Source: a virus
Strand: one strand, 5' to 3'
DNA length: 38,048 nt
Virus record (IMG/VR): IMGVR_UViG_3300046817_001007
Location: 1-38,048 of that record
Below, piece by piece: positions 2,879 through 33,804 of this stretch. Numbering within the stretch: position 1 is the stretch's first letter; each line of letters starts with the position of its first letter. The notes under the pieces were generated by a model, which saw only the letters and a program-made list of their open reading frames with translations, was not told the origin of the DNA and ran no database searches. A program made the position numbers and the translations under genes.

Positions 2879-2950
2879 GGTCCCCTCCCCTCGTTCCCCC
2901 GGATCAAGTCCGGGGTCACTCGACCCTCCCTCAAGGGGAGGGTGAAGGAC
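2879..2950 (+). repeat. Structured dispersed repeat, subtype B copy 1
   Basis: Architecture: GGTCCCCTCCCC, then a central stem (CCCCGGA 2897-2903 with TCCGGGG 2909-2915), then CCCTCCCTCAAGGGGAGGG. The final GGGGAGGG plus GAAGGA lies just before the ATG of tail tubular protein A at 2957 and probably provides its ribosome-binding site. Confidence 0.88.
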
Positions 2951-2956
2951 AGATAG

Positions 2957-3529
2957 ATGGCCGCCGGGGACAGCATCGTTTCGATTTGCAATATTGCTTT
3001 GATCGAGCTGGGCGAGGATCCGATTGTGGATCTGGCGCAGAACGTCAAACCGGCCATCCTCTGCCGCGCCCGTTATGACGATGTCCGCCGCGGGGTGTTG
3101 CGCGCCTCGCTGTGGAGTTGCAACACGGCCTACGCGCAGCTCGCGGCTTCACCGACGCCGCCGCCGTTCGGCTGGTCGCAGTCCTATCCGCTGCCGGCGG
3201 ATTTTCTGCGCATGATCAAAATCTGGGACAATTCCGACGCCAAATGGGAGGTTGTCGGGCGCAATCTGTACACGAATGAAGGCGCGCCGCTGAACGTGGT
3301 CTATGGCACCGATTTGCAGGATCCTTCCGTCATGGATCCGCTGCTGGTGCAGACCATCGGTTACACCCTGGCGCTGGATCTGTGTCACCCCATTACCAAT
3401 TCGAACGATATCTTCGATCGCGTGGCGAAGAAGATGGAAGGGAAACTGGATATCGGGCGTCTGACCACGTCGCAGGAGAATAGCCCGCGCGAGTGGGATG
3501 AGGATGTCTGGTTGCGGAGCCGGCGTTAG
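2957..3529 (+). CDS. Tail tubular protein A (T7 gp11-like)
   Basis: A 190-residue protein resembling T7-type tail tubular protein A, the ring that joins the portal to the nozzle of the short tail. Typical features are the N-terminal ICNIALIELGEDPI segment, the YDDVRRGVLRASLWSC block (residues about 38-55), a YPLPADFLRM motif, and a C-terminal region ending in an acidic DEDVW stretch. The start codon sits six bases after repeat B copy 1. The stop TAG shares one base with the GTG start of the nozzle gene, indicating coupled translation of the two tail parts. Confidence 0.88.
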   Translation: MAAGDSIVSICNIALIELGEDPIVDLAQNVKPAILCRARYDDVRRGVLRASLWSCNTAYAQLAASPTPPPFGWSQSYPLPADFLRMIKIWDNSDAKWEVVGRNLYTNEGAPLNVVYGTDLQDPSVMDPLLVQTIGYTLALDLCHPITNSNDIFDRVAKKMEGKLDIGRLTTSQENSPREWDEDVWLRSRR

Positions 3530-6081
3530 TGCGGACCGATTTTGAGATCAGCAATTTTACGGCGGGGGAGCTCAGTCCGCGGCTGAAGGGGCGGACGGAT
3601 TACAAGAATTATTACAGCGGGCTCGATACCTGCCTCAACATGGTGGTGCTGCCGCAGGGCGGCATGACGCGGCGGCCGGGCTGCTTGCTGGCGGCGCTGG
3701 CCAAGGATCAGACGGATACTCCATTCCGTACCCGGAACATCCGGTTCATTTTTTCGACCGTGCAGGCCTATGTGCTGGAATTCAGCAATCTGAATGTGCG
3801 GGTTTACATGAATGACGGCGTGGTGCTGAACGGCCTCACACCGGTCGATATCGTGACACCCTACACGGCCGCCGAGCTGGCGCAGATCCAGTACACGCAA
3901 TCCGCCGACACCCTGTTCCTGCTGCATCCCAATCATCCGCCGGCGAAGCTGACCAGGTCGAGCCATATCAATTGGGCTTATGCGGCGCTGACATTTCTCG
4001 ACGGCCCCTATCTGCCGGTCAACACGACCACGACGACGCTGACGCCGTCCGGTGTTTCGGGCAGCATCACCATCACGGCGTCCTCGATCGTTGGCATCAA
4101 TGTGACGCCGCAATCGACCGGGCAGGGGTTTCTGGCAAGCGATGTCGGCCGGTTGATGCGTATCCAGCTGCTGAGCCTGTGGGCGTGGTGCATCATCACC
4201 GCGGTTGCCGATACGCTGAACGTCACAGCGACGGTGCAATCCGCGGTCGCCAATGGCGCATCGGGCGCGCTGGATGGCGCGCCCTGGGTGGCCAATACGA
4301 CCTATGTCACCGGCGCGGTGGTGCTGCAGAGCGGGGCGACTTACCAGGCGATTGTCGGCGGCGTTTCGGGCCCGGCCGGCCCGTCCGGTACCGGCGCGGT
4401 GATTACGGATGGCACCGTGCAATGGCAATTCCTCGCGGCGGGTATCCTGCCGGCGGCGACGACGCAATGGCGGCTCGGCAAATGGGGCGCCACCAATGGC
4501 TATCCGCAAATCCCGATGTTCTGGCAGCAGCGGCTGGTCTTTCTCGGGACCAATTTCCAGCCTTCCGCGGTCGAGGCATCGGTGACCGCCGATTACACCA
4601 ATATGTCGCCGACGCAGGCCGATGGCACCACGACCGACAACAACGCGCTGTCCTGGGTGATCAGCGATGACCAGGTGAACGGCGTGCGCTGGGTGTCGCC
4701 TGCGGGCAGCGCGATCGCGCAGCAGCTCGGCATCGGGACTTCGGGCGCGGAGCAGATCATGCAGCCGGCGACCAATAGCCAGGCGCTGTCGCCGACCAAT
4801 GTCCAGGTTTACCAGGAAACCCAGATCGGATCGTCGGAAGTGCCGGCGCTTCGCATCGGAAAATCGGTGCTGTTCGTCAATCGCTCGGGCCGCTTCCTGA
4901 TGGACTGGCTGTGGCAGTGGGCGATCAACGGTTATATGGCGATCGACCGCACGGTGGATTCCGAGCACATCACGCGGCCTGATCCCGCGACACTGCAGGG
5001 CATCATCGCCACCGCCTATCAGCAGACGCCATACCGCGTGGTGTGGTGCGTGCGCGGCGACGGGGCGCTGATCGGGCTGACCTTCATGCCCGAGCAGAAT
5101 GTCTATGCCTGGCACCGCCATCAGCTGGGCGGGCAATATTACGGCGGGCCGCCGGTGGTCGAATCGGTGTGCTGCATTCCTTCGCCGGATGGCTCGTATG
5201 ACGAGCTCTGGCTGTCGGTGCTGCGGACGGTGGCCGGCGTGCCGACGCGGACGATCGAAGTCATGGCGCGCTATTTTGACGGCGTGCCGGCCGAGCAGGC
5301 GTTTTTTGTCGATTGCGGGCTGTCCAGCGCGCTGAATTTCCCGATCAACGCCACCATCACGCCGAGCGCGGCCAGCGGCAATGGCGCGACATTCACGACC
5401 AATGTGGGGGCGTTCTCGCCGGCGGTTGTGGGCAATTTCCTGCGGCTGAATGGCGGGCTGGTGCTGGTCAAGACGTTCTTCATGGATACGAAGATCGGCG
5501 GCGATTACTGGCGTCCGGCGCGCAATGTGCGGCCCGTGGCGCCGGGGGAATGGAGCATCACGGCGCAGTCCGCGAGTTTTTCCGGGCTTTCCTATCTCAA
5601 CGGCGAAACCGTTCAGATGCTGGGCGACGGCGCCGATATGGGCAAGGCGGTTGTGGCGGGCGGTTCGGTCACCCTGCCAAACGCGTTCACGGCGTCCTAC
5701 GCGACCATCGGCCTGCCCTACGCGTTCCGCGCCGTCACAATGCCGTTTGCGCCCCAGCGTGCGCCGCAGAGCGTGCAGGGCCGCGCCAAACGCATCGACC
5801 ACCTGTATCTGCGCTTTGTGGAGACGCTGGCGGTTTCTTATGGCCGGGTGAAGACGGATTCCATCACCGCGGTGCAAACCGATGTGGTCGATGCCGTGCT
5901 GACGCGTTCGGCCGGCGATGTCATGGGGCAGGCGCCGGCGCTGTTCAGCGGCATCAAGCGGCTGCCGTCGCCCGGCGGCTATGACGAAGAGGGCCAGATC
6001 CTGATCACGGGCGAGGGGCCCTATCCCTGCACCGTGCTGGCGATCGAAGCCAAGGGCGCGACGGGGGAAGTCGGCACATGA
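3529..6081 (+). CDS. Tail nozzle protein (tail tubular protein B, T7 gp12-like)
   Basis: An 850-residue protein whose N-terminus (SNFTAGELSPRLKGRTDY, then YYSGLDTCLNMVVLPQGGMTRRPG) is a strong signature of phage nozzle/tail tubular B proteins: a GELSPR motif followed by GG-x-x-RRPG. It forms the distal tube of the short tail, through which DNA leaves. The length agrees with the family's usual 750-900 residues. The start is GTG 3529, overlapping the previous stop by one base. The last four bases overlap the next ATG. A long antisense open frame covers this gene but is a composition artefact. Confidence 0.92.
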   Translation: MRTDFEISNFTAGELSPRLKGRTDYKNYYSGLDTCLNMVVLPQGGMTRRPGCLLAALAKDQTDTPFRTRNIRFIFSTVQAYVLEFSNLNVRVYMNDGVVLNGLTPVDIVTPYTAAELAQIQYTQSADTLFLLHPNHPPAKLTRSSHINWAYAALTFLDGPYLPVNTTTTTLTPSGVSGSITITASSIVGINVTPQSTGQGFLASDVGRLMRIQLLSLWAWCIITAVADTLNVTATVQSAVANGASGALDGAPWVANTTYVTGAVVLQSGATYQAIVGGVSGPAGPSGTGAVITDGTVQWQFLAAGILPAATTQWRLGKWGATNGYPQIPMFWQQRLVFLGTNFQPSAVEASVTADYTNMSPTQADGTTTDNNALSWVISDDQVNGVRWVSPAGSAIAQQLGIGTSGAEQIMQPATNSQALSPTNVQVYQETQIGSSEVPALRIGKSVLFVNRSGRFLMDWLWQWAINGYMAIDRTVDSEHITRPDPATLQGIIATAYQQTPYRVVWCVRGDGALIGLTFMPEQNVYAWHRHQLGGQYYGGPPVVESVCCIPSPDGSYDELWLSVLRTVAGVPTRTIEVMARYFDGVPAEQAFFVDCGLSSALNFPINATITPSAASGNGATFTTNVGAFSPAVVGNFLRLNGGLVLVKTFFMDTKIGGDYWRPARNVRPVAPGEWSITAQSASFSGLSYLNGETVQMLGDGADMGKAVVAGGSVTLPNAFTASYATIGLPYAFRAVTMPFAPQRAPQSVQGRAKRIDHLYLRFVETLAVSYGRVKTDSITAVQTDVVDAVLTRSAGDVMGQAPALFSGIKRLPSPGGYDEEGQILITGEGPYPCTVLAIEAKGATGEVGT

Positions 6082-6545: not shown

Positions 6546-6553
6546 CAACCATC

Positions 6554-7024: not shown

Positions 7025-7036
7025 TGCGGTGCTGCG

Positions 7037-10672: not shown

Positions 10673-10695
10673 TGGGCGCGCGCGCGATGACAGCC

Positions 10696-10758
10696 GGTCC
10701 CCTCCCCGAAATTTCGCTGCGCGAAATTATCGACCCTCCCTCAAGGGGAGGGTAGGAA
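10696..10758 (+). repeat. Structured dispersed repeat, subtype B copy 2
   Basis: GGTCCCCTCCCC, central stem AATTTCGC / GCGAAATT (an entirely different sequence from copy 1 but again self-complementary), then CGACCCTCCCTCAAGGGGAGGG. The 3' G-tract followed by TAGGAAC directly precedes the ATG at 10760. Confidence 0.9.
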
Positions 10759-12373: not shown

Positions 12374-12567
12374 TGCGCGGTGAAGCAGCCGTCATCAATG
12401 CGGCCTATCGCGAGCACTTGCGCACGCTGATGGTGATTTGTTTCGCGAGCCATGAGTCGACCGATCCGGTGGCAAGATTCCGCAGCAATCTGGCGTCGGC
12501 GCGAAGCCGGCGGGACGGCGCGCTGGCGATCCTGCGCGAAAAACCTGAAACCGCGGGAGCGAAGTGA
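12373..12567 (+). CDS. Small unknown protein between internal virion genes, 64 aa
   Basis: A 64-residue, basic, Ala/Arg-rich protein with two predicted helices (AAVINAAYREHLRTLMVICF and FRSNLASARSRRDGALAIL). It starts by TGATG overlap with the gp15-like gene, and its TGA overlaps the next ATG in the same way, so it is almost certainly translated. GTG 12370 is a possible alternative start. I do not recognise it. By position it could be a small virion or assembly factor. Confidence 0.6.
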   Translation: MRGEAAVINAAYREHLRTLMVICFASHESTDPVARFRSNLASARSRRDGALAILREKPETAGAK

Positions 12568-15500
12568 TGGCAGATCCGGCCGGTGATTTTTTGGCTTCGC
12601 ATGCTCTGGCGCAGAACGGGACGCCGGCGGCGAGTCTGGATGCTTTGTTGGGCGGGTCGCCGCAGGTGGCGACGGTGACCAAGCCTGTTGCGCCTGCCGG
12701 CGCGGTCCCCCCATCCGTCGCGCCTGACGGCGCGCCACCTTCCCCCTCAAGGGGGGAAGGGAATGGGGCCTATGTGCCTTTGGGGCAGCGGGTGCTTGAT
12801 GTGCTCGGGCAGTTGACTTCGCGGTTTACCGGGGATGTCGCGGGGAGTTTTGATGCTCTGAAGGCCGACTGGCTGAAGGGGCAGGGGCTGAATGATGAGG
12901 CGGCGAAGCAGCCGTTCTGGCAGGGGCTGAAAACCAGTTTCGAATCGCAGTTGCAAACCGGCAAGACCGCGGCATCGGCGTTCAAGCTGGTGATGTCGCC
13001 AATTTCCGCGGCATTCGATACCGGCTCGAATGCGGTGGCGAAGGCGATCGGCGCGGCCGCCGGGCTGGGCGACCAGGATGTTGAGAAGCTCACCAAAGAT
13101 CTGAGCGATAATCTGTGGGCGCTCGGTCCGAAGGATGGACTCGGCGAAGCGCTTAACGCTCCAAAGCCTGGCGCAACGCCGCCGGGCGGGACACCGCCGC
13201 CGCCGCCAGCTGCAGCAGCTCCGGCCGCTCCGGCAACGCCGCCGGCGGGGCGGGATTGGCTTTTTCTTGGCAAGAAGTTGCTCAACGTCACGGCCGACGT
13301 GCGCAATGCGACGGCGGATTATCTCAGCGGCAAGAAGGCGGATAATCCTATTCAGGCTTCGCTCGATACGCTGTCCGACGCCAATGGCGCGCGCGATGTG
13401 ATCAAGGATGTGGCGCGCACCATTCCCGATGGCGATGTGAAACCCGACGACGTGCTGCGCTCGGCCGCCTACACGCTGCAGCGTTCGCCCGATGAAATCA
13501 TGACCGGGTTGAAAACCGCTCTGCCGACCGATGCCGAGATCCTGTCGTGGAAAATGACGATGGAGGCGGGCGGCGCGCAGTTGAAGCAGGCGGCCGATGC
13601 CTATGTCGCCGCTCCGACGCCGGAGAATTTCGAAGCGGCCGCACGCGCTTTCGGGCTATCGCTGCATATGGTCGAGAATTGGGACCAGGTCGGCACCGAA
13701 CAAGCGCGCGCATTTCGCGCCCGGCAGCTCGCGGCGGAAGGGACTTCCGAGCAGACCAAGGGGATCATGCAGATCCTGCAGAACGCAGGGCCAGACAATG
13801 TCGAGGACGCGATCCGCCGCGCGGCCGCGCTGGAGGATCCGGCGAAAGTGCCGGGCTGGCTCAATCTGCTGCGCCGTGCGACTTCGCGCGATTCCATCGT
13901 GGCGAGCTGGACCAATCTGCTGCTGTCGAATGTGCCGAAGACGCTGACCAAGAAACTGTTCGGCGATGCGTTTGCCGCGGCATGGCAGGTTTCGACGCGC
14001 GGGATTGCCGAGACGGCCGGCGGAGTCGACCAGGGCACCACGCTGAACACGCTCTACGGTTATTGGGGCGCCATGGGTGATGGCGTGCGCGCGGCCGGCA
14101 AGGCGCTGCGGCAGGGCGGGTCGCAATTCCACGGCGAATATCAGACCGTCGAGGGACTGGAGAAGCAGCGGCTGGGCGAGCTCGCCAAGGGAATGTCCGG
14201 CGCCGATGAACCGACATCGGGTGCGATCGCGCTGCTGCGGGCCGCGCTGCCGACCGACTGGATCGGCGCCGCCGATGATTTCGCCAAGACCATTCACTAT
14301 CGCGCGGAACTGCGGCGGCTGTCCTGGGCGTCGGCATCGAAAGAGGGACTCGAGGGTGACGCGATGAATGCGCGCATCAGCGAATTGATGGATGTGCCGC
14401 CGCCCGCGATCCATGAACAGGCGCTGGCCTATGCGCTGAAAAATTCCTTCCAGGAGCCGCTGCCGGGCGTGATGCATGATCTGCAGAACGGCGTCGATCG
14501 CATGAACTGGGATGTCGGCGGTACCGGCATCAGCGTTCCCTTCGGGCGTTTCATCCTGCCGTTCGTAAAGGTGCCGTCCAACCTGGTGCGCTATGCCTAT
14601 AACGCTTCGCCGCTGCCGGCACTGGCGCCGTCGCCGGCGTTCCTGGCGGAATTGCGGGCAGGCGGTTCGCGCGCGGCGCTGGCCAAGGCATCGGTGGCGC
14701 TGGGCTCGGCCGTCGCCGGGATTGCCGGGTCGCTGGCCTATCAGGACAGTCTGACGGGCATGGGGCCGAGCGAACCGGATGAGCGGCGCTTCTGGCTCGC
14801 CACGCATCAGCCCTATTCGGTGAAGCTCGGGGGCACCTGGTACGGCTTTGGCGGCTTGCATCCGCTGGGAATGATCCTGGGCGCGGTCGGCGATACCGCT
14901 GACGTGATCCGTTACAGCAAACAGCGCGACGCCGAAGACGCGGCCGCCTCGATCGTGTTCGGGCTGGCGCATGCGCTGATGGAACCGACCTTCATGGTGG
15001 GTCTCGGCGATTTCCTCGAAGCGGTGAATGATCCGACTGCGGACGGCCGGCGCTTCATGGAAAACATCGCCGCCGATTTCGCCGCGCCGCAGGGCGGGGT
15101 TGCGGTGGACAACGCCACGGATCCCTGGCGCCGGGCGCATTATGACCTGGTCGAAGCGATCCGCGCGCGCACGCCGGGGCTGTCGAAGGATCTGCCGCCG
15201 GCGCGCACGATCTGGGGCGACCCGCTGCCGCGCGCGCATGGCTGGGCGCCGTGGGGCGATGCCGGCGCGCTGGGGCGGGCCTTTTCGCCGGTGCCGATGC
15301 GCGGTGAAGACGAGCTCGCACAGCCGATCGACAAGTGGATTTGGGAGAACCGCAAGGCGTTCCCGAATGACGCCAGCGAAGGGCGTCTCGGGTTGACGCC
15401 GCCGGGGCAGTTTCAGACGTTTTCGAGCGGCGCGGTTTCGACGCCGGTGCAGTTGACGGCGCAGCAGCTCGACAAGCTGCGCGTGCTGGCGGGCAACGGG

Positions 15501-15797
15501 CTGAAGGATCCCGCGACCAAGCTGGGCGCGAAGGATGCGCTGAATGCGCTGGTCGAAGGGAAATTCCCGATCGCCAGCGTGCAGAAGCAGTGGAACGACG
15601 GATCGCCGGAATTGCGCGCCATCATGGTGCAGCGCTTCTGGGGGCAATATCGCGACGGCGCGAAGAAGGCGATTTTGCGGGAGGATCCGGAGCTGCTCGA
15701 TACCGTGCAGAACGGGCTGCGCCTGCGCGCCGCGGCGCTGTCTTCCGCACAAGGACAATCTCAGGTGAAACAGCCGGTGATAGGGGCAGGGCCATGA
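12567..15797 (+). CDS. Internal virion protein D-like (T7 gp16-like), 1076 aa
   Basis: The largest protein of the genome, helical and Ala-rich, in the position of the ejected inner-membrane channel protein gp16 of T7-like phages. Residues about 47-65 (PSVAPDGAPPSPSRGEG) are encoded by an inserted B-type repeat. Another Pro/Ala-rich linker is at about 205-230. The middle and end contain patches such as NLLLSNVPKTLTKKLFG, MNWDVGGTGISVPFGRFILP, WYGFGGLHPLGMILG and a DFAAPQGGVAVDNATDPWRR segment found in large internal proteins of this phage group. I see no lysozyme/transglycosylase motif at the N-terminus, unlike T7 gp16. ATG 12567 is chosen over GTG 12564. Confidence 0.75.
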   Translation: MADPAGDFLASHALAQNGTPAASLDALLGGSPQVATVTKPVAPAGAVPPSVAPDGAPPSPSRGEGNGAYVPLGQRVLDVLGQLTSRFTGDVAGSFDALKADWLKGQGLNDEAAKQPFWQGLKTSFESQLQTGKTAASAFKLVMSPISAAFDTGSNAVAKAIGAAAGLGDQDVEKLTKDLSDNLWALGPKDGLGEALNAPKPGATPPGGTPPPPPAAAAPAAPATPPAGRDWLFLGKKLLNVTADVRNATADYLSGKKADNPIQASLDTLSDANGARDVIKDVARTIPDGDVKPDDVLRSAAYTLQRSPDEIMTGLKTALPTDAEILSWKMTMEAGGAQLKQAADAYVAAPTPENFEAAARAFGLSLHMVENWDQVGTEQARAFRARQLAAEGTSEQTKGIMQILQNAGPDNVEDAIRRAAALEDPAKVPGWLNLLRRATSRDSIVASWTNLLLSNVPKTLTKKLFGDAFAAAWQVSTRGIAETAGGVDQGTTLNTLYGYWGAMGDGVRAAGKALRQGGSQFHGEYQTVEGLEKQRLGELAKGMSGADEPTSGAIALLRAALPTDWIGAADDFAKTIHYRAELRRLSWASASKEGLEGDAMNARISELMDVPPPAIHEQALAYALKNSFQEPLPGVMHDLQNGVDRMNWDVGGTGISVPFGRFILPFVKVPSNLVRYAYNASPLPALAPSPAFLAELRAGGSRAALAKASVALGSAVAGIAGSLAYQDSLTGMGPSEPDERRFWLATHQPYSVKLGGTWYGFGGLHPLGMILGAVGDTADVIRYSKQRDAEDAAASIVFGLAHALMEPTFMVGLGDFLEAVNDPTADGRRFMENIAADFAAPQGGVAVDNATDPWRRAHYDLVEAIRARTPGLSKDLPPARTIWGDPLPRAHGWAPWGDAGALGRAFSPVPMRGEDELAQPIDKWIWENRKAFPNDASEGRLGLTPPGQFQTFSSGAVSTPVQLTAQQLDKLRVLAGNGLKDPATKLGAKDALNALVEGKFPIASVQKQWNDGSPELRAIMVQRFWGQYRDGAKKAILREDPELLDTVQNGLRLRAAALSSAQGQSQVKQPVIGAGP
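12704..12762 (+). repeat. Structured dispersed repeat, subtype B copy 3 (in frame inside a gene)
   Basis: GGTCCCCCC, central stem CCGTC / GACGG around 12713-12730, then CCTTCCCCCTCAAGGGGGGAAGG. It lies wholly within the gp16-like gene and keeps its frame, adding a Pro/Ser-rich loop near the N-terminus. Confidence 0.82.
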
Positions 15798-17703: not shown

Positions 17704-18483
17704 CTAAGTGGTTGTTTTTGCTGAAGGCTTCCGCTGATTTGTAATCACGGGGTCGCGGGTTCGATCCCTGCAGCCGGCACCAATTTTCCCAATGTTTTCA
17801 ACGGGCGCGGGAGAACAAACGTTCTCGCTGTGAGAGGTTTGGCCTCTCACGTGAGAGTAAATCAATTGCGCGGCGGCATAGTCGCCCCACTGTTGCGCCA
17901 TCGCGGCGGCAATTCCGGGAAAGAAACGGCTGCGTTCTTTCCACCGCGTCGGGCTCGGCGGCATCCGGTGAACGCGGGCGCGGCGGCCGTCCACAATGTC
18001 AGTCGGCCGCAGGGGCGGCAGGTTCTTCAGCCAGAAGCAGGTGCGCTTGGTTTCGCCGTGCCCGAACTGCCACGGCTGCACCGATTGCGCGTGTGTCTCG
18101 TAGTTCGCGATCAGAGCTTTTGCATGCCGGTGCATCACCGGGTTTTCAACGGCGATGCGCTCGATCGGCGCATTCCAAAAAGCAGAAAACAGGGCTGCGC
18201 CTTCTTCGAGCTCGCGGCGCATGTCCGCGATCGTGCGACCCGGTGGTGGCGCCGATAGCCAGCGAACACCGGAATTGCACAGCCGCGTGCATGGCGGATG
18301 CGCAACGATCAGCAGATCCCATCCGTCGTGCAAATAATCGCGGGCGTCGCCGGTAATGTGACGGTTGCTGCGATCATCGGCCGGCAGCAGATCACAGGAC
18401 CAGGCATCATAATCGCGGGCGAGAAACGCATTGCGCACCGTGCCCGAAAATTCACAGGCAATCAGGACTCGCGGGCGTCTCAT
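17704..18483 (-). CDS. Cytosine-C5 DNA methyltransferase-like protein
   Basis: A 259-residue protein starting MRRPRVLIACEFSGTVRNAF (the nucleotide-binding start, motif I-like). It has AHPPCTRLCNSG around residue 60-72, carrying the Pro-Cys of motif IV, and IAVENPVMH, an EN motif VI equivalent. It is short and lacks an obvious target-recognition domain, as in many small phage proteins annotated as cytosine methyltransferases. The last 45 or so residues are encoded by the attP region, including antisense reading of the tRNA-Thr fragment, so the C-terminus would change on integration. The natural end may be earlier. The ATG overlaps the TGA of the preceding gene. Confidence 0.75.
   Translation of the reverse strand: MRRPRVLIACEFSGTVRNAFLARDYDAWSCDLLPADDRSNRHITGDARDYLHDGWDLLIVAHPPCTRLCNSGVRWLSAPPPGRTIADMRRELEEGAALFSAFWNAPIERIAVENPVMHRHAKALIANYETHAQSVQPWQFGHGETKRTCFWLKNLPPLRPTDIVDGRRARVHRMPPSPTRWKERSRFFPGIAAAMAQQWGDYAAAQLIYSHVRGQTSHSENVCSPAPVENIGKIGAGCRDRTRDPVITNQRKPSAKTTT
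17735..17782 (+). other. Probable attP core: 3' half of a tRNA-Thr(UGU) gene
   Basis: From the anticodon loop onward the sequence is that of a tRNA-Thr: TTTGTAA loop with anticodon TGT (17740-17742), T-arm GCGGG-TTCGATC-CCTGC, acceptor strand AGCCGGC, discriminator A and encoded CCA at 17780-17782. The 5' half is missing, and the upstream sequence cannot complete the anticodon stem. A tRNA 3' end about 1.1 kb from a tyrosine integrase is the usual form of attP. Integration would rebuild the host tRNA. Confidence 0.85.
17830..17850. other. Strong 8-bp hairpin beside attP
   Basis: GTGAGAGG (17830-17837) and CCTCTCAC (17843-17850) are perfect complements with a five-base loop. It lies 50 bp from the tRNA fragment, inside the apparent 3' end of the methyltransferase frame. 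It could be the leftward operon's terminator stem or an arm-type site. It overlaps the first copy of the 17-bp direct repeat. Confidence 0.5.
17845..17861. repeat. 17-bp direct repeat flanking the methyltransferase, copy 1
   Basis: TCTCACGTGAGAGTAAA differs in one base from TCTCATGTGAGAGTAAA at 18478-18494. The two copies bracket the core of the methyltransferase gene. Confidence 0.75.
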
Positions 18484-18689: not shown

Positions 18690-18883
18690 TCGGCGATCTG
18701 TTTGGCGTCGCGCAGCAGGCGCAGCAGCTCATCGCAGGTTCGGCCGAGATTGCCGATCTTGCGATCCTTACGCTTTAGCATGCGCCGGGCGTTCTGGATC
18801 ACGCGAACAAATTTGTCGCGCTCCTGCAACACCAGCAGCGACTCGATCGCAGCGAGCTGCTGATCGAGATCGGCCTTCACCAC
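18686..18883 (-). CDS. Small helical protein, about 65 aa, coupled to the integrase
   Basis: A charged, all-helical protein (VKADLDQQLAAIESLL, RKDRKIGNLGRTCDELLRLL) starting with GTG 18883 (or GTG 18880) inside the last codons of the integrase, AAGTGGTGA. Its stop overlaps the next start. The heptad-like leucines suggest a coiled coil or dimer. No family is recognised. Confidence 0.62.
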   Translation of the reverse strand: MVKADLDQQLAAIESLLVLQERDKFVRVIQNARRMLKRKDRKIGNLGRTCDELLRLLRDAKQIAE

Positions 18884-20211
18884 TTCTGCCCGGCCAGGAA
18901 GGTGTTGAATTTTTTGGCGGCGCTTTGGGCCATGGCGTCTGTGCGCACGAAGTAATGCTTGTCCAGGATGTCCTGGACGGTGCGCAGGCTGTGGCCGGTG
19001 ATGGTGGCGATTTCGGCCACCGTGCAGCCCGCCATGAACAGCCAGGTGACGGCGGTGTCGCGCAGATCGAGGAACCATTTGCCGGCGACGGACGGGCAGG
19101 TGGCGAGCGTGGGCAGCACATTGCCGAGCCGGGCGGCGCGCGCGGGACCGAGCTCGTCATGCACGCGTTTGGCGGCATCTTCCGCGCCGGCCGCCACCGC
19201 GCGCACCATCCGGAACAGCGCCCGGAAGCGCGAGCCGCCGGCGTGATAGGGCGCGCCCGTCAGTTCACAGACGATTTCGGCGGTGTGCTTCACGTTGGGC
19301 CATGTTTCGGCCTTGCGTTTGCGCGCGGTTTCGATGCGGGCCTTCAGCGCGTCGGCCGCCTGCAGCTTGATCATCGCGCCGGTTTTGCCGGTGCGGAAAA
19401 CCATGAGCGTCGGTGGATCTGACTTGCCCCCTTCGGCGCTTTGCGCCACTTCCCCCCGCGATGCGGGGGAAGAGAAGCTTACGTCGCGGAGGGCGATCAC
19501 GTCGCCCTGGCGCTGTCCCGTGAGCACGGCGAGAATGACGGCATCGCCCATGCTGGGCAGTTCGAGCGCATCGGCGGCCGCCGTGAAGGCGCGGATTTCT
19601 TCGGTGGTCCACAGCACCAGGCGGCCGGTGGTGGCGGCGAAATCGACGTTGCGGCACGGGTTCCTGGTCAGCCAGTCGCGGTCCTCGATCGCGTAATTGA
19701 ACACGATCTTCAGTGTGCGGAGAACCGCGTTCGCCCAGGCGGCGCCGGAGTTTTCCTCCAGCGCGGCGTGGAATTCCGCGATCGCCGGTTTGGTCAGCCC
19801 GGTGATGGGGACATCGCCGCACCATTCCCGCAGCGCCGCGATGTGGTAGCCGTAGCCGTCGCGGGTGCCTTTTTTCAGCCGGCGCGTGAAGTGCGGCGAG
19901 GTTTCGTAGGCGGTGAAGAGGGTGGCCATTGTGCGGGACTGTGGATCAGACTTGCCCCCCTCGGCCGCTGCGCGGCCACTCCCCCCCGCGATGCGGGGGG
20001 AGATGAAAGCTGCGGGGGAGGAAAGGTTTGGTGATTTGATGGTGGCGTTGAGTTTTTCGGCGGCGTCGATCGCGGCGCCGCGCGGCAGCCAGTGTCCCGC
20101 TTCGTCCTTCAGATCCTGTCCCTTGAAGCCTTTGGCGCGCAGTTCGGGGCTGGGCACCCAGCGCGGCCGCCCGTGACGCCAACAGAGATAGGGGACTTTC
20201 TCGCGCGACAT
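18877..20211 (-). CDS. int: Tyrosine-type phage integrase
   Basis: A 444-residue site-specific recombinase that would integrate the phage at a tRNA-Thr gene. The C-terminal catalytic domain shows TGQRQGDVIALRD (first Arg), LDLRDTAVTWL (second Arg, about 384), ITGHSL (His about 407) and LDKHYF (nucleophile Tyr about 420). The HxxR histidine position is Leu, a variation seen in related families, where it is often Gln. The N-terminal 60 residues are the arm-binding part (GRPRWVPSPELRAKGF). Two in-frame insertions of the A-type repeat enlarge it: FISPRIAGGSG... to ...AEGGKSDP at about residues 69-90, and SFSSPASRGEV...AEGGKSDP at about 246-267. Both fall in expected linkers or loops, so activity may be kept. 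Confidence 0.95.
   Translation of the reverse strand: MSREKVPYLCWRHGRPRWVPSPELRAKGFKGQDLKDEAGHWLPRGAAIDAAEKLNATIKSPNLSSPAAFISPRIAGGSGRAAAEGGKSDPQSRTMATLFTAYETSPHFTRRLKKGTRDGYGYHIAALREWCGDVPITGLTKPAIAEFHAALEENSGAAWANAVLRTLKIVFNYAIEDRDWLTRNPCRNVDFAATTGRLVLWTTEEIRAFTAAADALELPSMGDAVILAVLTGQRQGDVIALRDVSFSSPASRGEVAQSAEGGKSDPPTLMVFRTGKTGAMIKLQAADALKARIETARKRKAETWPNVKHTAEIVCELTGAPYHAGGSRFRALFRMVRAVAAGAEDAAKRVHDELGPARAARLGNVLPTLATCPSVAGKWFLDLRDTAVTWLFMAGCTVAEIATITGHSLRTVQDILDKHYFVRTDAMAQSAAKKFNTFLAGQKW
19415..19475 (+). repeat. Structured dispersed repeat, subtype A copy 1 (inside integrase)
   Basis: GGATCTGACTTGCCCCC, central stem GGCGC-TTT-GCGCC, then CTTCCCCCCGCGATGCGGGGGAAG. It lies in the catalytic-domain part of the integrase, antisense to that gene, and adds about 20 residues in frame. 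Confidence 0.9.
19943..20004 (+). repeat. Structured dispersed repeat, subtype A copy 2 (inside integrase)
   Basis: GGATCAGACTTGCCCCC, central stem GGCCGC-TGC-GCGGCC, then CTCCCCCCCGCGATGCGGGGGGAG. It is a second insertion in the same integrase and in the same frame as copy 1; both encode AEGGKSDP on the - strand. Confidence 0.9.
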
Positions 20212-22428: not shown

Positions 22429-22583
22429 GACTGCGGCGAGGCGTGGAATGGCTCCGGGGTGACGCCGCATACGGTTGCGGAACCGTCCTCCTGCACCCCG
22501 GAGCTGAGGAACCAGAAGTATCCCCCACCCGAAATTCGCAAGTGCGAATTGTCGGCCTCCCCTCAAGGGGGAGGCGGGGATGA
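22425..22583 (+). CDS. Small ORF with a repeat-derived C-terminus, 52 aa
   Basis: ATG 22425 overlaps the Cro stop, and TGA 22581-22583 overlaps the next ATG, so coupling supports translation. The first 30 residues (MRLRRGVEWLRGDAAYGCG...) are unique. The last 20 or so, beginning SPTRNSQVRIVG and continuing to the end, are encoded by repeat B copy 4. It is either a small gene whose end was replaced by the repeat, or a non-functional spacer ORF. Function unknown. Confidence 0.45.
   Translation: MRLRRGVEWLRGDAAYGCGTVLLHPGAEEPEVSPTRNSQVRIVGLPSRGRRG
22519..22580 (+). repeat. Structured dispersed repeat, subtype B copy 4
   Basis: TATCCCCCACCC, central stem AATTCGC / GCGAATT, then GCCTCCCCTCAAGGGGGAGGC. 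The G-tract GGGGGAGGCGGGG immediately precedes ATG 22580 and acts as its apparent ribosome-binding site. Confidence 0.87.
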
Positions 22584-22942
22584 CTGACACGACGCCCATC
22601 GAGCGGTTTTGTTTGGATTGCCGGCGGGCGGGTTCGCCGGATGTGCCGAAGGATCGCGACATCGCCCTGGCGGGATTGGTGGAGACGCCGTTTTTTCCGG
22701 CCAGTGAATATGGCGTGGTGCGGGCGCGGCTGATGGCGGCGGTGCGCAACCTGGCGCTGGCCGCGGAAGCGGCGCGCGGGGATCCGGTGGTGGTGCAGGG
22801 GATCTGTTTCGTCATCGCTTCGCTCGGCGTGATGATCTCGGCACTTGCCCCCTCCGGCGCTTCGCGCCCCCTCCCCCCGCGAAGCGGGGGAGGACAGGAC
22901 ATCGATCCGGACTCGGTTCCCTACAAGCCGGGGGTCGATTGA
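22580..22942 (+). CDS. Early protein of unknown function with a repeat insertion near its end, 120 aa
   Basis: The first 90 residues include a CLDCRRAG motif, a PFFPASEYGVVRARLMAAVR helix and a hydrophobic VQGICFVIASLGVMISAL stretch that could be a membrane or buried helix. Residues about 88-108 (LAPSGASRPLPPRSGGG) are encoded by A-type repeat copy 3. A unique 12-residue tail follows the repeat, so the frame was kept through the insertion. The stop overlaps the next ATG by one base (TGATG). No family recognised. Confidence 0.6.
   Translation: MTDTTPIERFCLDCRRAGSPDVPKDRDIALAGLVETPFFPASEYGVVRARLMAAVRNLALAAEAARGDPVVVQGICFVIASLGVMISALAPSGASRPLPPRSGGGQDIDPDSVPYKPGVD
22841..22894 (+). repeat. Structured dispersed repeat, subtype A copy 3 (inside a gene)
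   Basis: CTTGCCCCCTCC, central stem GGCGC-TTC-GCGCC, then CCTCCCCCCGCGAAGCGGGGGAGG. It is inserted in frame near the 3' end of the 120-aa gene, sense orientation. Confidence 0.9.
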
Positions 22943-26197: not shown

Positions 26198-26211
26198 GGG
26201 GGGATCAGGCC

Positions 26212-26586: not shown

Positions 26587-27699
26587 ATGTCCCGGTATCT
26601 TTACAGCGTTGAAGAGATTGACCGGATGTTGGTGGACCGGATGGCGGAGCTGGCGAAGCTGCTGCTGCCCGATGGCGAGAAGCGCGGGACGGAATGGGTT
26701 GCGCTGAACCCCGGCCGCGCCGATCGCCGCAAGGGTTCGCTGTCGGTCAATCTCAATACCGGCGTGTGGAAGGATTTCGCCAGCGGGCAGGGCGCGCGCA
26801 ATCTGCCGGGACTCGGGCTGGTGGCGAATTTTGCCGCCGGCGGGGATTTTCTGGCCGGCATTGCCTGGGCGAAGAAGTGGCTGGGCATCGAGGAGGGCGG
26901 TGCATCCGTCGCCAAAGCCAAGGATGTCGAGGAGGCCGCGCGGGCGGCACGGGCCAAGCGCGAAGCGGAAGAACAGCGCCGTGGCGTGTTCAAGCGCGAG
27001 CTGGCGTTCAAGCTGTTCCTGGGAGCGCGGCCACTGGATGGGACAGATCCGGCGTCGCTGTATTTGCGCGGGCGCGGCATCGAGATGCGATCATGGCCGC
27101 GTGCTCTGCGGTTTCATCACGGGATCGAGCATCCGGGGCATCCGGGACGGTGGCCGGCGCTGCTGGCGTGCATGTCGCTGGAGGGCGCGCCGAATGGGTT
27201 TGGCGGGGTGCATCGGATTTATCTGGAGCGCGGACTTGCCCCCCTCGCCGGCTGCGCCGGCACTCCCCCCCGCGATGCGGTGGGAGAGAATTGGGTTAAG
27301 GCGTTTGGGGGTGTCGAGGCGAAGCTGGCTTTGGGGTATTTGCCGGGCGCGACCATCCGCATACAGAATGGCGCGTCGGGCAAGCGGCTGGGTGATGCGC
27401 CGGAAGGCGAGGAGCTGCTGCTGACAGAAGGCGTCGAGGATGCCTGCGCTCTGGCGATTGCTCTGCCTGATGCGCGGATCTGTGCGGCCTATTCCCTGGC
27501 CGCGATCGGGCAGGCCAAGTTTCCGGAAAATATCCGCCGCGTGACGATCGTCGCCGACAATGACGAAGGGCAGGCGGTCGAGCAGCTGGAACGTGCGAGC
27601 GAGCATCTGGCGCACCGGCACGAGCTCGTGTCCGTGGCGCATCTGCCGGCCGCCTACAAGGACGTGAACGACGCGCTGATTGGGAAGGTGCGCGGATGA
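26587..27699 (+). CDS. Toprim-domain DNA primase
   Basis: A 370-residue phage primase. The N-terminal 70 residues contain WVALNPGRADRRKGSLSVNL and NTGVWKDFASGQGARNL, the primase zinc-ribbon-like entry domain in which the usual Cys are replaced. A middle part follows with LYLRGRGIEMRSWPRALRFH. The C-terminal Toprim domain has EELLLTEGVEDACALAIAL (conserved Glu, about 279-296) and RRVTIVADNDEG (DxD-like, about 316-327). The segment LAPLAGCAGTPPRDAVGEN, at about residues 218-236, is encoded by A-type repeat copy 4, in a loop before the Toprim domain. It would prime DNA synthesis with the helicase at 27854. ATG follows the previous TGA directly. Confidence 0.85.
   Translation: MSRYLYSVEEIDRMLVDRMAELAKLLLPDGEKRGTEWVALNPGRADRRKGSLSVNLNTGVWKDFASGQGARNLPGLGLVANFAAGGDFLAGIAWAKKWLGIEEGGASVAKAKDVEEAARAARAKREAEEQRRGVFKRELAFKLFLGARPLDGTDPASLYLRGRGIEMRSWPRALRFHHGIEHPGHPGRWPALLACMSLEGAPNGFGGVHRIYLERGLAPLAGCAGTPPRDAVGENWVKAFGGVEAKLALGYLPGATIRIQNGASGKRLGDAPEGEELLLTEGVEDACALAIALPDARICAAYSLAAIGQAKFPENIRRVTIVADNDEGQAVEQLERASEHLAHRHELVSVAHLPAAYKDVNDALIGKVRG
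27232..27287 (+). repeat. Structured dispersed repeat, subtype A copy 4 (inside primase)
   Basis: GGACTTGCCCCCCTC, central stem GCCGGC-TGC-GCCGGC, then CTCCCCCCCGCGATGCGGTGGGAG, with one mismatch in the last stem. Inserted in frame in the primase, sense orientation. Confidence 0.88.
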
Positions 27700-30713: not shown

Positions 30714-30901
30714 CAGGATTGCTCCTCGATGCTGAACAGCCAGCCATTCACGCGGATGAATTCTTGCGCGTCCATATCCCAAGCCTTGAATGCGCCGTCG
30801 AATTCGGTGCCAGGCCGCACGAGCAGCGACAGCACGTATTCGCCGCCGGCCGCGACGATCTCCTGGGTGAATCCTGCCTGAATTGCGAGGTTGTCTGACA
30901 T
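30713..30901 (-). CDS. Small unknown protein, first gene of the second leftward operon, 62 aa
   Basis: AGGAG lies 8 bases before ATG 30901. The protein is a compact alpha/beta form (IQAGFTQEIVAAGGEYVLSL, GTEFDGAFKAWDMDAQEFIR). It has no motif that I recognise. Its position directly after the promoter with the TGTAGAT palindromes suggests a regulatory or anti-host role, which is inference only. Confidence 0.65.
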   Translation of the reverse strand: MSDNLAIQAGFTQEIVAAGGEYVLSLLVRPGTEFDGAFKAWDMDAQEFIRVNGWLFSIEEQS

Positions 30902-30948
30902 CGGTTTGTCTCCTGGTGAGCGGGGCGCTGCCCCTGTCCAATGCGGCC

Positions 30949-30977
30949 GATGTAGATAATCTCTACGGAATTGTCAA
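30949..30977 (-). promoter_or_regulatory. Leftward promoter of the second regulatory operon
   Basis: On the - strand a perfect TTGACA lies at 30977-30972, and TACATC at 30954-30949 gives a 17-bp spacing. Operators lie on both sides. It would drive the genes at 30901-30119. Confidence 0.6.
30951..30967. promoter_or_regulatory. Second-switch operator, site 1
   Basis: TGTAGAT-AAT-CTCTACG, an imperfect 17-bp palindrome over the spacer and -10 region of the leftward promoter. It is centred 33 bp (about three helical turns) from site 2. Confidence 0.72.
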
Positions 30978-30983
30978 CAGCGA

Positions 30984-31000
30984 TGTAGATAAAATCTACA
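30984..31000. promoter_or_regulatory. Second-switch operator, site 2
   Basis: TGTAGAT-AAA-ATCTACA, a perfect 7-bp inverted repeat, just upstream of the -35 box. Confidence 0.78.
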
Positions 31001-31067
31001 GCCGGCGGCTGCGCGGCGGGCCGTCCAAACCCTGTTGCGCCATAAGATGATCGCGCGCCCGGCCGGA

Positions 31068-31100
31068 GCACAACGTGCGCGTTACACGCGCGCGTTGTGC
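31068..31100. repeat. Imperfect inverted repeat upstream of the iterons
   Basis: GCACAACGTGCGCG (31068-31081) is complementary to CGCGCGCGTTGTGC (31087-31100) with one mismatch, around a five-base centre. Confidence 0.7.
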
Positions 31101-31229
31101 GCAGGTCGGAACAGCGCGCGTCCGCATTCACTTCGCCGCATCAGGTGTTTAGGCGCGTCAATGCGGCAATCTGGCACGCCCGCACCCGCACCCTTTCATG
31201 GAAAACAAAGGCGCGTGCGAGTTCTGTTG

Positions 31230-31462
31230 TGTCCCATGGGTCCGGGACAGCGGCGCTCGCCCTAATCGCTTGCGGCACCTGAACAATCGCGGCGCTGTCC
31301 CATTGTCCCGCTGTCCCATGCCGAATGCTCGCACATATGCGCACGCTCGCACGCGCGCGTGCGAGGCAAACCCATGGGACAATGGGACAATGGGACAGTA
31401 GGTATATATATCAATGAATTCAGCGTCTTATGCTCTGAAACGCTGTCCCATGGCTGTCCCAT
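31230..31462. repeat. Octamer iterons TGTCCCAT / ATGGGACA
   Basis: Forward copies lie at 31230-31237, 31296-31303, 31304-31311 (variant TGTCCCGC), 31312-31319, 31444-31451 and 31455-31462. Reverse copies lie at 31374-31381, 31382-31389 and 31390-31397. The middle blocks are three directly adjacent octamers on each side of a palindrome, arranged as an inverted repeat. This is characteristic of initiator-binding sites. Confidence 0.9.
31346..31365. repeat. Perfect 20-bp palindrome at the centre of the iterons
   Basis: CTCGCACGCGCGCGTGCGAG reads the same on both strands. It is near the midpoint of the two inverted iteron triplets (31296-31319 and 31374-31397). Confidence 0.88.
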
Positions 31463-31834
31463 TGACAGGACGGGCCTGATCGTGGCGGTCCTGAACCAAT
31501 TAAAAATGGGGGTTTTAATGGGTGGGTGGCGCCGATTTCCGGGGGTTTTCGCGGGCGAGGAGCTGGCGATCGGCCTGGTCGAATCGGGCGATCTCTCACG
31601 CCGATCCTCTCACGGCGCGCCTAGTCGCTTGCACCTGTTCAGTTTTTCGCCAGTCGGCGCGGTGATTGGGAATCACGAGGCCTCGACCAGGCGCCGCGAA
31701 TTCGCGCCGGCGGAGGGGGTACCCCGGTTTTCGCGCCGAGCGCCCCCGCGCCCCCCTGCTGGTGTGCTTTACCGCCGATCGGGGAGTTTTCGTCCGCGCA
31801 CGGATTTTTATTCTCCGGACCCGGGGGTCGGGGT

Positions 31835-32305
31835 TTGAAGGCGGTGCTGGAACTGGTTCAGCCCGGCGATCCGCCTACGGACGAAGCGCAGCAGCTGGAT
31901 CTGATCGGGGCGGAGAAGCCGGAGGAGTTTGCGGCGCGCATCGAGCGGCGCGGGCCGGGGCGGCCGCCGGGCGCACGAAACAAGCGCACCCAGGAATGGG
32001 CGGAATTTTTGCTCGCGCGGAATGCGAGCCCGCTGGAAGTTCTAATGCAGATCGCGAATGCCAGAGTCGATGATCTTGCGAGGCAGCTAGGTTGCAAAAG
32101 ACTGGAGGCTTTGCAAGAGAAACGTTTGGCGGCGATCGCGCTGGTGCCGTACCTGCATCAGAAGATGCCGCTGGCGGTCGATCTCACAAACCGCAATGTG
32201 GTCTATCTGACAATCAACGAAACATCCGAGCTGCAGCCGTCCGATGGTGATCTGACGCTGACGGCAACTGTCGTTAAGGCGATCGATGACAAATCTGAAT
32301 CTTGA
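31835..32305 (+). CDS. Small terminase subunit-like protein
   Basis: A 156-residue protein starting with TTG 31835, with GTG 31844 the alternative. It contains RRGPGRPPGARNKRTQEWAE, an AT-hook-like GRPPG basic motif commonly found at the start of small terminase-like and DNA-recognition proteins of these phages. A helical region ANARVDDLARQLGCKRLEAL follows, with a C-terminal beta part. It is directly before the large terminase and overlaps it by 20 bp. It would recognise the packaging site, likely in the non-coding region just upstream. Confidence 0.75.
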   Translation: MKAVLELVQPGDPPTDEAQQLDLIGAEKPEEFAARIERRGPGRPPGARNKRTQEWAEFLLARNASPLEVLMQIANARVDDLARQLGCKRLEALQEKRLAAIALVPYLHQKMPLAVDLTNRNVVYLTINETSELQPSDGDLTLTATVVKAIDDKSES

Positions 32306-33740
32306 GTGGCGCTCTCCGGGTCCGGTGAGCACGGCCTTCATGGCGAGCACGAAACCCGTGCCGGTGCTGAATGGGCCGATCGGCGCGGGCAAAACCACAA
32401 CGGTGTTCATCAAGGCGATCCGCACCGCAGCGAAGCAGATGCGCTCGACGCGCGACGGAAAAAGAAAATTCAAACTGTGCGTGGTGCGCGACACCTATCG
32501 GCAATTGTGGAAAACGACGCTGCCGAGCTGGTGGAAGCGGGTGCCGCGCGCGGTGGGCGAATTCACCGGGGCGGAAAATGCGCCGGCGACGCATCGCGTC
32601 GATTTCCAGCTGGCCGACGGCAGCGTGGTGGAATTCCAGGCGGACTTCGTCGCGATCGGCGAGAATGCGGTCGAGGATGTGCTGCGCGGCTATGAACCGA
32701 CTGCGTTCTATCTCAACGAAGCGGATCTGCTGGCGAAAGAGGTTTTCACCTTCGCCCGCGGCCGCGCCGGCCGCTATCCCGACATGAGCGAGGGCGGCCC
32801 GTCCTGGTACGGCATCTTCATGGACTGCAACGCGCCGGAACTGACGGCGTGGATGTACACGGACATTTTCCGCAACACGCCGGAATTCGTCGATCTGTTT
32901 CGCCAGCCGTCCGGCTTGTCGCCGGATGCGGAGAACCTGATCAACCTGCCGCCGGGTTATTACGATGCGCAGGTTGGCGGCCAGCCGGACTGGTACCTCA
33001 AGCGCATGATCATGAACGTGCCGGGTTACAGCCGCGCCGGTAAGCCGATCTACAGCGAATTCAATTTCGATCTGCACGTGTCGCGGCGGCCGCTCGAACC
33101 GATCCCGGGCCTGGCGCTGACGATCGGGCTCGATGCCGGCATGAGCCCGGCCGCGGTGATCGGGCAGCGCTTGCCGGACGGGCGGCGGCACATCCTGGAC
33201 GAGCTCGTGAGCGAGCAGGGCACCGGGGCGATGCGCTTCGGCGACATGCTGGCGAAGCTGCTGCATGACCGCTATCGCTTCATCCGCAATGTGCGCGCCT
33301 TTGCCGATCCGTCCGCGGCCTATGGCAACGACAAAAAGGCGGGCGAGAAAAGCTGGATCGAGATCGTGGCGGCAAAGGCCGGCATCCGCATCGAGCCGGC
33401 CCCGACCAATCGCATCCTGCCGCGCATCGAGGCGGTGCGGCGGCCGCTGTGTTCGCTGATCGAGGGCAAGCCGGCGGTGCTTTACGACCAGCGCTGTGCG
33501 GTGCTGATCGAGGGGTTCAATTCGGGCTATCGCTTCCGCAAGCTGCAGGGCAGCGAAGAGCGGTACACGGATCAACCGGAGAAGAACGAATATTCGCATG
33601 TGCATGATGCGAATCAGTATCTGCATTCGGCCGATGGCGAGGATCTGGAAATCCGCGAGCGCAAGACGGCGCACGAGGGGCAGCTGCGCGCCTGGGCGGC
33701 GGCGGCGCAGCATGATTGGGATCCGCTGGCGGCGCGGTAG
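32286..33740 (+). CDS. terL: Large terminase subunit
   Basis: A 484-residue DNA-packaging motor. The ATPase domain has Walker A GPIGAGKT (residues 30-37) and Walker B TAFYLNEAD (139-147, catalytic Glu145). The nuclease domain begins at LTIGLDAGMSPAAV (about residue 280, first metal-binding Asp), has FADPSAAYG (second acidic site) and HVHDANQYL near the end (third Asp). The length and motif spacing agree with podovirus large terminases of the BPP-1-like group. It starts inside the end of the small terminase gene. Repeat A copy 5 follows the stop. Confidence 0.93.
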   Translation: MTNLNLEWRSPGPVSTAFMASTKPVPVLNGPIGAGKTTTVFIKAIRTAAKQMRSTRDGKRKFKLCVVRDTYRQLWKTTLPSWWKRVPRAVGEFTGAENAPATHRVDFQLADGSVVEFQADFVAIGENAVEDVLRGYEPTAFYLNEADLLAKEVFTFARGRAGRYPDMSEGGPSWYGIFMDCNAPELTAWMYTDIFRNTPEFVDLFRQPSGLSPDAENLINLPPGYYDAQVGGQPDWYLKRMIMNVPGYSRAGKPIYSEFNFDLHVSRRPLEPIPGLALTIGLDAGMSPAAVIGQRLPDGRRHILDELVSEQGTGAMRFGDMLAKLLHDRYRFIRNVRAFADPSAAYGNDKKAGEKSWIEIVAAKAGIRIEPAPTNRILPRIEAVRRPLCSLIEGKPAVLYDQRCAVLIEGFNSGYRFRKLQGSEERYTDQPEKNEYSHVHDANQYLHSADGEDLEIRERKTAHEGQLRAWAAAAQHDWDPLAAR

Positions 33741-33747
33741 GCCGCGG

Positions 33748-33804
33748 CCAGACTTGCCCCCTCCGGCGCTTCGCGCCCCCTCCCCCCGCGATGCGGGGGA
33801 GGAA
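33748..33804 (+). repeat. Structured dispersed repeat, subtype A copy 5 (intergenic)
   Basis: CAGACTTGCCCCCTCC, central stem GGCGC-TTC-GCGCC, then CCTCCCCCCGCGATGCGGGGGAGG. It lies a few bases after the large terminase stop, almost identical to copy 3. Its hairpins could lower read-through but there is no T-run. Confidence 0.92.

What the first reader, a model, noticed from the sequence alone, without database searches (positions are those of the whole stretch)
2879..33804. Nine copies of a structured dispersed repeat with covarying stems, all on one strand
Copies lie at 2879, 10696, 12704, 22519 (type B) and 19415, 19943, 22841, 27232, 33748 (type A). Each has a 5' C-tract, a central stem-loop, and a terminal hairpin (CCCTCCCTCAAGGGGAGGG in B, CCCCCGCGATGCGGGGG in A). 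The central stem differs in sequence between copies yet stays complementary: AATTTCGC/GCGAAATT, CCCCGGA/TCCGGGG, AATTCGC/GCGAATT, GGCCGC/GCGGCC, GCCGGC/GCCGGC. That implies selection on the structure. All nine have the same orientation regardless of gene direction, as expected if they enter by a strand-specific, single-strand route such as the one used by REP/RAYT elements. No transposase is encoded here, so the host would have to supply it. I know of similar GC-rich elements in alphaproteobacterial chromosomes; dense carriage by a phage is what I find striking.
Basis: partly seen in the sequence, partly recalled or inferred. Interest (0 to 1): 0.82.

Follow-up and report, generated by a model that had tools for sequence, protein, structure and literature searches.

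The report
Triple-helix-type DNA repeats inside a phage
A temperate bacterial virus carries nine short DNA inserts, five of them in open reading frames without breaking them, whose letters co-vary the way a strand folding back on itself into a three-stranded helix would require; relatives of the virus have none, so this looks like a mobile bacterial repeat that has moved into a virus.

Summary
The nine copies are real, all on one strand, and far beyond chance. A motif-free triplex search finds eight of them in the window, none in 15 shuffles and none in 0.53 Mb of related phages. Related phages have short gaps where the two checked intergenic copies sit. Five copies lie in open reading frames, which stay open; two of these are in one integrase.

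The 5' C-tract is a mirror image of the terminal hairpin's left arm, and it covaries with the hairpin in 199 elements: 561 of 593 positions fit, against 443±6.5 shuffled (0/2000). Opposite G the tract has C; opposite A it has T or A. Read on the minus strand these are the purine-motif triplex rules (G·GC, A·AT, T·AT). The copies therefore resemble the known intrastrand-triplex repeats of E. coli (PIT/TMECO), but with a covarying hairpin as second loop.

In Caulobacterales and other bacteria the same unit occurs mostly as inverted doublets. The RAYT idea is not supported: the three element-rich Caulobacter isolates have no Y1 transposase, and there is no GTAG motif. How the elements move is unknown, and triplex formation was not measured.

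The parts
2881..2943 (+). Copy B1, between a gene ending 2848 and the tail gene starting 2957; third tract CCCCTCCC / purine arm GGGGAGGG, central stem CCCCGGA/TCCGGGG
   Evidence: the gap is 108 nt here against 10-15 nt in L142, L177, L236, L179
10698..10754 (+). Copy B2, intergenic, just upstream of ATG 10760; central stem AATTTCGC/GCGAAATT; purine arm GGGGAGGG near the ribosome-binding position
   Evidence: relatives have about 0-4 nt between these genes, 87 here; sub-threshold Rfam whalefall-1 hit on the minus strand
12706..12762 (+). Copy B3, inside the internal virion protein ORF 12564-15797 (peptide PAGAVPPSVAPDGAPPSPSRGEGN), frame kept; 10/10 triads
19422..19475 (+). Copy A1, inside the integrase ORF (minus strand), frame kept (SFSSPASRGEVAQSAEGGKSDP), between GDVIALRDV and LMVFRTGKTG
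   Evidence: the integrases of L141, Paracoccus phage Psul1 and EBPR podovirus 2 align with a gap here
19950..20005 (+). Copy A2, second in-frame copy in the integrase (FISPRIAGGSGRAAAEGGKSDP), N-terminal linker
22521..22576 (+). Copy B4, intergenic, ends directly before ATG 22580; central stem AATTCGC/GCGAATT
22843..22896 (+). Copy A3, in frame near the end of ORF 22580-22942 (peptide ALAPSGASRPLPPRSGGGQD)
27234..27289 (+). Copy A4, in frame in the primase ORF 26587-27699 (LERGLAPLAGCAGTPPRDAVGEN); one arm base changed (GGTGGGAG)
   Evidence: primase homologues align with gaps here
33752..33805 (+). Copy A5, intergenic, after the terminase gene (ends 33740); 96% identical to A3
18877..20211 (-). 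Tyrosine integrase carrying copies A1 and A2
   Evidence: PHROG phrog_1 integrase E 3.3e-28
26587..27699 (+). DNA primase carrying copy A4
   Evidence: phrog_510, Toprim_3, DUF7146
12564..15797 (+). Internal virion protein carrying copy B3
   Evidence: phrog_6651 E 1.7e-20

Best explanation
The nine copies are a dispersed, non-coding repeat of bacterial origin that has been inserted into this temperate phage several times. Each unit is, on the minus strand, a GC-rich hairpin (pyrimidine arm, loop, purine arm), then a covarying stem-loop, then a purine tract that can lie antiparallel along the purine arm and form a purine-motif intrastrand triplex. Shown by sequence: the hairpin, the central stem, the tract-to-arm covariation, absence from related phages, preserved reading frames. 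Inferred: that the triplex forms, probably when the strand is single (replication, transcription or supercoiling). Inferred: that the pool it came from is a host chromosome of the Caulobacterales/Hyphomonadaceae type, where the same unit sits mostly in inverted doublets. Inferred: that copies enter by a host-supplied, structure-dependent reaction on one strand, and that GC-rich stop-free units survive in genes because frames stay open. The enzyme is unknown and is not a RAYT in the element-rich Caulobacter genomes.
For: Tract-arm rule in 199 elements: position 6 arm A has tract T/A in 191 of 193, arm G has C in 6 of 6; position 7 arm A has T in 61 of 63, arm G has C in 133 of 136; score 561/593 against 443.0±6.5 (0/2000); shuffled only within genomes 252/261 against 235.8±1.9 (0/2000); 30 unique combinations 74/87 against 53.9±3.1 (0/2000). 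With Watson-Crick-type partners only, 0/500 shuffles, and sliding the partner by one to three columns lowers the covariation score. Nine phage copies: 73/77 triads with six different tract sequences. Motif-free search: 8 of 9 found, 0 in shuffles, 0 in 534,582 bases of relatives. Empty sites. Bacterial doublets. Type A copies open in all 30 frames against 74% background.
Against: Triplex formation was not measured, and nearest-neighbour folding cannot score it. The A-or-T rule was noticed before it was tested, and related sequences are not independent. Bacterial alignments were made with a model built partly from the phage copies. No close relative with a polymorphic site was found, so insertion ends and target sites are only approximate. 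Copies A1/A2 and A3/A5 resemble each other, so some may be internal duplications. The host was not identified.
Confidence: 0.74

Rival explanations
1. REP/REPIN-type elements moved by a RAYT (Y1 transposase) supplied by the host: the phage copies are single REPs inserted as single-stranded DNA.
For: Inverted doublets in bacteria look like REPINs; one orientation in the phage; Y1 transposases do occur in several xanthomonads that carry the element.
Against: No PF01797 in Caulobacter Root343, RHG1, BP25 or Alkalicaulis, nor in the phage; no GTAG motif; xanthomonads with Y1 have fewer copies (7-28) than Caulobacter without (51-67).
Confidence: 0.12
2. The units work as RNA or as gene-expression parts (terminator, ribosome-binding context, small RNA) and are kept for that; they are not mobile DNA.
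For: Three of four type B copies sit in gaps before a start codon, and in two (B2, B4) the purine arm is within a few bases of it; whalefall-1 (a predicted noncoding RNA) scores 27.7 and 25.3 bits, below its threshold of 37, on the minus strand.
Against: Five of nine lie inside ORFs; two lie antisense within one integrase; no relatives have any; whalefall-1 does not hit other element-rich loci.
Confidence: 0.1
3. The tract-arm match is only C-richness plus shared ancestry; the units are ordinary two-hairpin palindromes and there is no third strand.
For: Five of eight tract positions are nearly invariant C; sequences are related.
Against: The non-C positions covary (T with A, C with G) in the right register only, also within single genomes and between two units of one doublet, and across Chloroflexi, xanthomonads and Alphaproteobacteria.
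Confidence: 0.1
4. The triplex is the pyrimidine type on the plus strand (C+.GC, T.AT) and not the purine type on the minus strand.
For: Geometry is equally good: the tract is parallel to the purine arm.
Against: A opposite A at position 6 is common (67 against 124 with T), which the pyrimidine motif does not allow but the purine motif does (T.AT); it also needs acid pH.
Confidence: 0.1

Closest known systems
Intrastrand triplex motifs TMECO / PIT elements of E. coli (Hoyne et al. 2000 and Holder et al. 2015, PMC4666352)
   Same: Purine-motif hairpin plus third purine tract, GC-rich, about 8-9 triads, dispersed, sometimes in inverted pairs of unlike units.
   Different: TMECO has a 3-nt second loop and a fixed sequence (CCCTCNCCC...GGGNGAGGG); it was reported always intergenic, without strand bias and not in phages.
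REP/REPIN elements with RAYT (TnpA-REP)
   Same: Short palindromic dispersed unit; inverted doublets in chromosomes.
   Different: No GTAG motif; element-rich Caulobacter isolates lack Y1 transposases; third-tract covariation is not a REP feature.
Rickettsia palindromic elements (PMC10969869)
   Same: Short palindromic elements inserted in frame into genes.
   Different: About 150 bp and in Rickettsia genes; here about 55-63 nt and in phage genes, with a third tract. Sequence relationship not tested.
Rfam whalefall-1 RNA (RF01762)
   Same: Hairpin, second hairpin, then a G-rich tract; two type B copies align over the full length.
   Different: Below the curated threshold; described as noncoding RNA from one metagenome; whether its tract covaries with its arm was not tested.
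Caulobacter CIR (CcrM-associated intergenic repeat)
   Same: Intergenic repeat of Caulobacter (recalled; listed in PMC10969869).
   Different: CIRs carry GANTC (recalled); six of eight Caulobacter stretches examined here lack it.

Membership tests
Intrastrand triplex repeat (PIT/TM class) | Pyrimidine arm, purine arm and third purine tract obeying G.GC, A.AT, T.AT over at least 8 triads with at most one mismatch | tested here: met
   73/77 triads; eight of nine copies found by a blind search, 0 in shuffles
Intrastrand triplex repeat (PIT/TM class) | Second loop of 1-6 nt (ITxF definition; 0-10 in Hoyne et al.) | tested here: not met
   Second loop is a stem-loop of about 13-35 nt: a variant, not TMECO itself
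Intrastrand triplex repeat (PIT/TM class) | Triplex shown by CD, NMR or DMS footprint | not testable with these tools
   None
REP/REPIN with RAYT | Y1 transposase (TnpA-REP) in the genome | tested here: not met
   PF01797 absent in G012, G400, G401, G001, G002 and in the phage; control genomes ring. The phage's real host is unknown
REP/REPIN with RAYT | GTAG-type tetranucleotide 5' of the palindrome | tested here: not met
   No GTAG next to either hairpin in alignment A1; conserved end is CTTG before the C-tract
REP/REPIN with RAYT | Inverted doublet arrangement | tested here: inconclusive
   Met in bacteria (68 of 79 opposite pairs CTTG-inward); not in the phage, where all nine are single
Rickettsia palindromic element | In-frame insertion into genes | tested here: met
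   Five of nine; this is a likeness in behaviour only
Rickettsia palindromic element | Sequence relationship to a known RPE family | not tested
   No RPE sequences compared
whalefall-1 RNA | Score above the Rfam gathering threshold (37 bits) | tested here: not met
   27.7 and 25.3 bits

The most novel reading that the evidence does not exclude
A mobile family whose transposition substrate is a triplex-folded single strand, moved by an unidentified host enzyme that is not a RAYT, entering phage genomes strand-specifically during unidirectional phage replication and tolerated in genes because the unit is almost stop-free.
Probability: 0.2. Interest if true: 0.86.

Novelty: new variant of a known kind. 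Interest (0 to 1): 0.63.

Why it matters
Intrastrand triplex repeats have been known in E. coli since 2000; the survey read here gives biophysical evidence for them but no covariation evidence that the third strand is under selection, and it reports none in phages. Joint changes of tract and hairpin across many bacteria give such evidence, and the limits of that survey (second loop of 1-6 nt) would explain why this variant was not listed. A phage full of copies with element-free relatives makes the open question of how such repeats move testable.

Tried and rejected
Strict type A pattern: 0 hits in viral and genome collections; relaxed pattern worked. BLAST of single elements against plasmids and phages: no match. 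Host search by the attP tRNA piece: best match G232 with one mismatch, but that genome has no elements; rejected as the element source. Integrase relatives in viral contigs: none by pattern. RAYT: rejected for the Caulobacter-type copies. A first count of the tract-arm rule with the register taken from the C-run start was noisy because some units read CTTC instead of CTTG; the register was then taken from the model alignment. Several B-like viral contigs (L323, L329, L339, L340) carry capsid or portal genes, and L339 has gene transfer agent domains, so they were not counted as phage carriage. Window-wide Rfam search gave only sub-threshold whalefall-1 and one chance hit. Prophages with a related head protein in Alphaproteobacteria were only about 40% identical and did not identify the host.

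Full report
WHAT THE WINDOW IS. An IMG/VR virus record of 38,048 bases with a 55-base direct terminal repeat (bases 1-55 = 37994-38048; virus record). It encodes a short-tailed phage: major head protein, internal virion protein, tail protein, terminase, portal, primase, and a tyrosine integrase. The portal is 45% identical to that of Pelagibacter phage HTVC010P. It is probably temperate: next to the integrase, bases about 17733-17782 read like the 3' part of a tRNA gene ending CCA (sequence). ARAGORN calls no complete tRNA, so this is a putative attachment site.

OBSERVATION. All nine copies are there and all are on the plus strand. Four sit between genes and five inside ORFs that stay open. 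Two copies are in the integrase, which is read from the minus strand, so orientation does not follow gene direction. Nine of nine in one orientation has p of about 0.004 if copies are independent; A3 and A5 are 96% identical and A1/A2 share flanking bases, so the true figure is weaker.

THE KEY FEATURE. Beside the two stems, the 5' tract is a mirror image of the left arm of the terminal hairpin, so it is complementary, in parallel register, to the purine arm: CCCCCTTC with GGGGGAAG (A1), CCCCCCTC with GGGGGGAG (A2), CCCCCTCC with GGGGGAGG (A3, A5), CCCCTCCC with GGGGAGGG (B1, B2), CCCCCCATCC with GGGGGGAAGG (B3), CCCCCACC with GGGGGAGG (B4). In all, 73 of 77 positions obey the rule: opposite G the tract has C, opposite A it has T or A. 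Read on the minus strand, the third tract is antiparallel to the purine arm and gives G.GC, A.AT and T.AT triads, the purine-motif rules as given in PMC4666352. The pyrimidine motif on the plus strand would not allow A opposite A.

STATISTICS. In 86 elements found with a pattern that leaves the tested positions free, the rule holds at 225 of 258 positions against 163.7±5.4 shuffled. In 199 elements aligned by covariance model R1, 561 of 593 against 443.0±6.5, none of 2000 shuffles reaching it; shuffling only within genomes 252/261 against 235.8±1.9 (0/2000); one example of each distinct combination (n=30) 74/87 against 53.9±3.1 (0/2000). A separate tool that allows only Watson-Crick-type partners gives 0/500 shuffles, and slides of one to three columns lower the covariation score. 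Position 8 also shows arm C with tract A in 22 of 23, mostly Caulobacter-type units, which the simple rule does not cover. In bacterial doublets the two units can differ while each is consistent within itself (L251). Cautions: the rule was noticed before it was tested; the model was built partly from phage copies; related sequences are not independent.

BLIND SEARCH. A script that looks only for a hairpin plus a third strand by these rules (8 triads, one mismatch, second loop up to 45) finds eight of the nine copies in the window, all with the third tract on the minus strand, plus one overlapping alternative fold on the plus strand at 12739; the ninth (27234) has a changed arm base. It finds nothing in 15 dinucleotide shuffles and nothing in 534,582 bases of related phages.

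INSERTION. Thirty related phage loci with head proteins 60-78% identical, and further relatives, have no R1 match in 653,790 bases searched. Between the gene ending at 2848 and the tail gene the gap is 10-15 nt in four relatives and 108 here; between the genes ending 10672 and starting 10760 it is 0-4 nt in relatives and 87 here (some relatives have longer gaps with unrelated sequence at the first place). Integrase and primase homologues align with gaps at the inserted peptides, at about 30% identity. Type A units are open in all 30 frames (background 74%), which would ease in-frame survival. Insertion is therefore well supported, but exact ends and target sites are not known.

WHERE ELSE. The same unit is in Caulobacter, Phenylobacterium, Henriciella, Oceanicaulis, Alkalicaulis, xanthomonads and scattered other phyla. 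At E 1e-5, Caulobacter RHG1, BP25 and Root343 have 67, 53 and 51 copies. In bacteria they form inverted doublets with the CTTG ends facing (68 of 79 adjacent opposite pairs, median spacer 14); in the phage all are single. One other phage contig, L008, has a doublet between a tail gene and the head gene. BLAST finds no copies in INPHARED phages or PLSDB plasmids.

MECHANISM. RAYTs are not supported: PF01797 finds nothing in the three Caulobacter isolates, Alkalicaulis, G001 or the phage, while control genomes ring. The GTAG motif of REPs (PMC8266576) is absent. My preferred reading is a host-supplied, structure-dependent insertion of one strand. This is inference: only structure, covariation, absence in relatives and frame preservation are shown. 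If the route is single-stranded, unidirectional phage replication could explain the single orientation, and chromosomal copies should show a replication bias; not tested.

RELATION TO KNOWN THINGS. The closest kind is the intrastrand triplex repeat: PIT elements and TMECO, shown to fold by CD, NMR and DMS, 23 copies in E. coli MG1655, always intergenic, no strand bias, some inverted pairs, reported not associated with phages (PMC4666352). This is a variant: the second loop is a covarying hairpin, longer than the 1-6 nt that survey allowed. In-frame insertion recalls Rickettsia palindromic elements (PMC10969869).

VERDICT. Observation confirmed; interpretation partly supported; new variant of a known kind, in an unusual carrier.

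Noticed in passing
window 17733-17782: 3' part of a tRNA-like sequence with anticodon TGT and CCA end beside the integrase: putative attP. Best match in 385 alphaproteobacterial genomes is G232 with one mismatch.
   Followed up: partly
L008:8400-8540: Another phage contig with a full inverted doublet of the element between a tail gene and the head gene.
   Followed up: partly
L323, L329, L339, L340: Contigs filed as viral carry several element units, mostly doublets, near capsid and portal genes; L339 has gene transfer agent domains (GTA_TIM, Rcc01698_C), so these may be chromosomal GTA clusters.
   Followed up: partly
window 10697-10755 and 22521-22577, minus strand: Sub-threshold matches to Rfam whalefall-1 RNA, whose layout is similar; that family may itself be a dispersed DNA repeat of this kind.
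   Followed up: partly
window 31295-31398: Inverted repeat with 26-nt arms (CTGTCCCATTGTCCCGCTGTCCCATG), 92% complementary, in a gene-poor region; possible origin or regulatory site.
   Followed up: no
window 19405-20025: The two integrase copies share flanking bases on both sides (GTGGATC.GACTTG before, AAGCT after), which suggests a common target sequence or an internal duplication.
   Followed up: no
199 bacterial elements: Where the arm has C at position 8 the tract has A in 22 of 23 cases, a regular exception to the simple triad rule, mostly in Caulobacter-type units.
   Followed up: no
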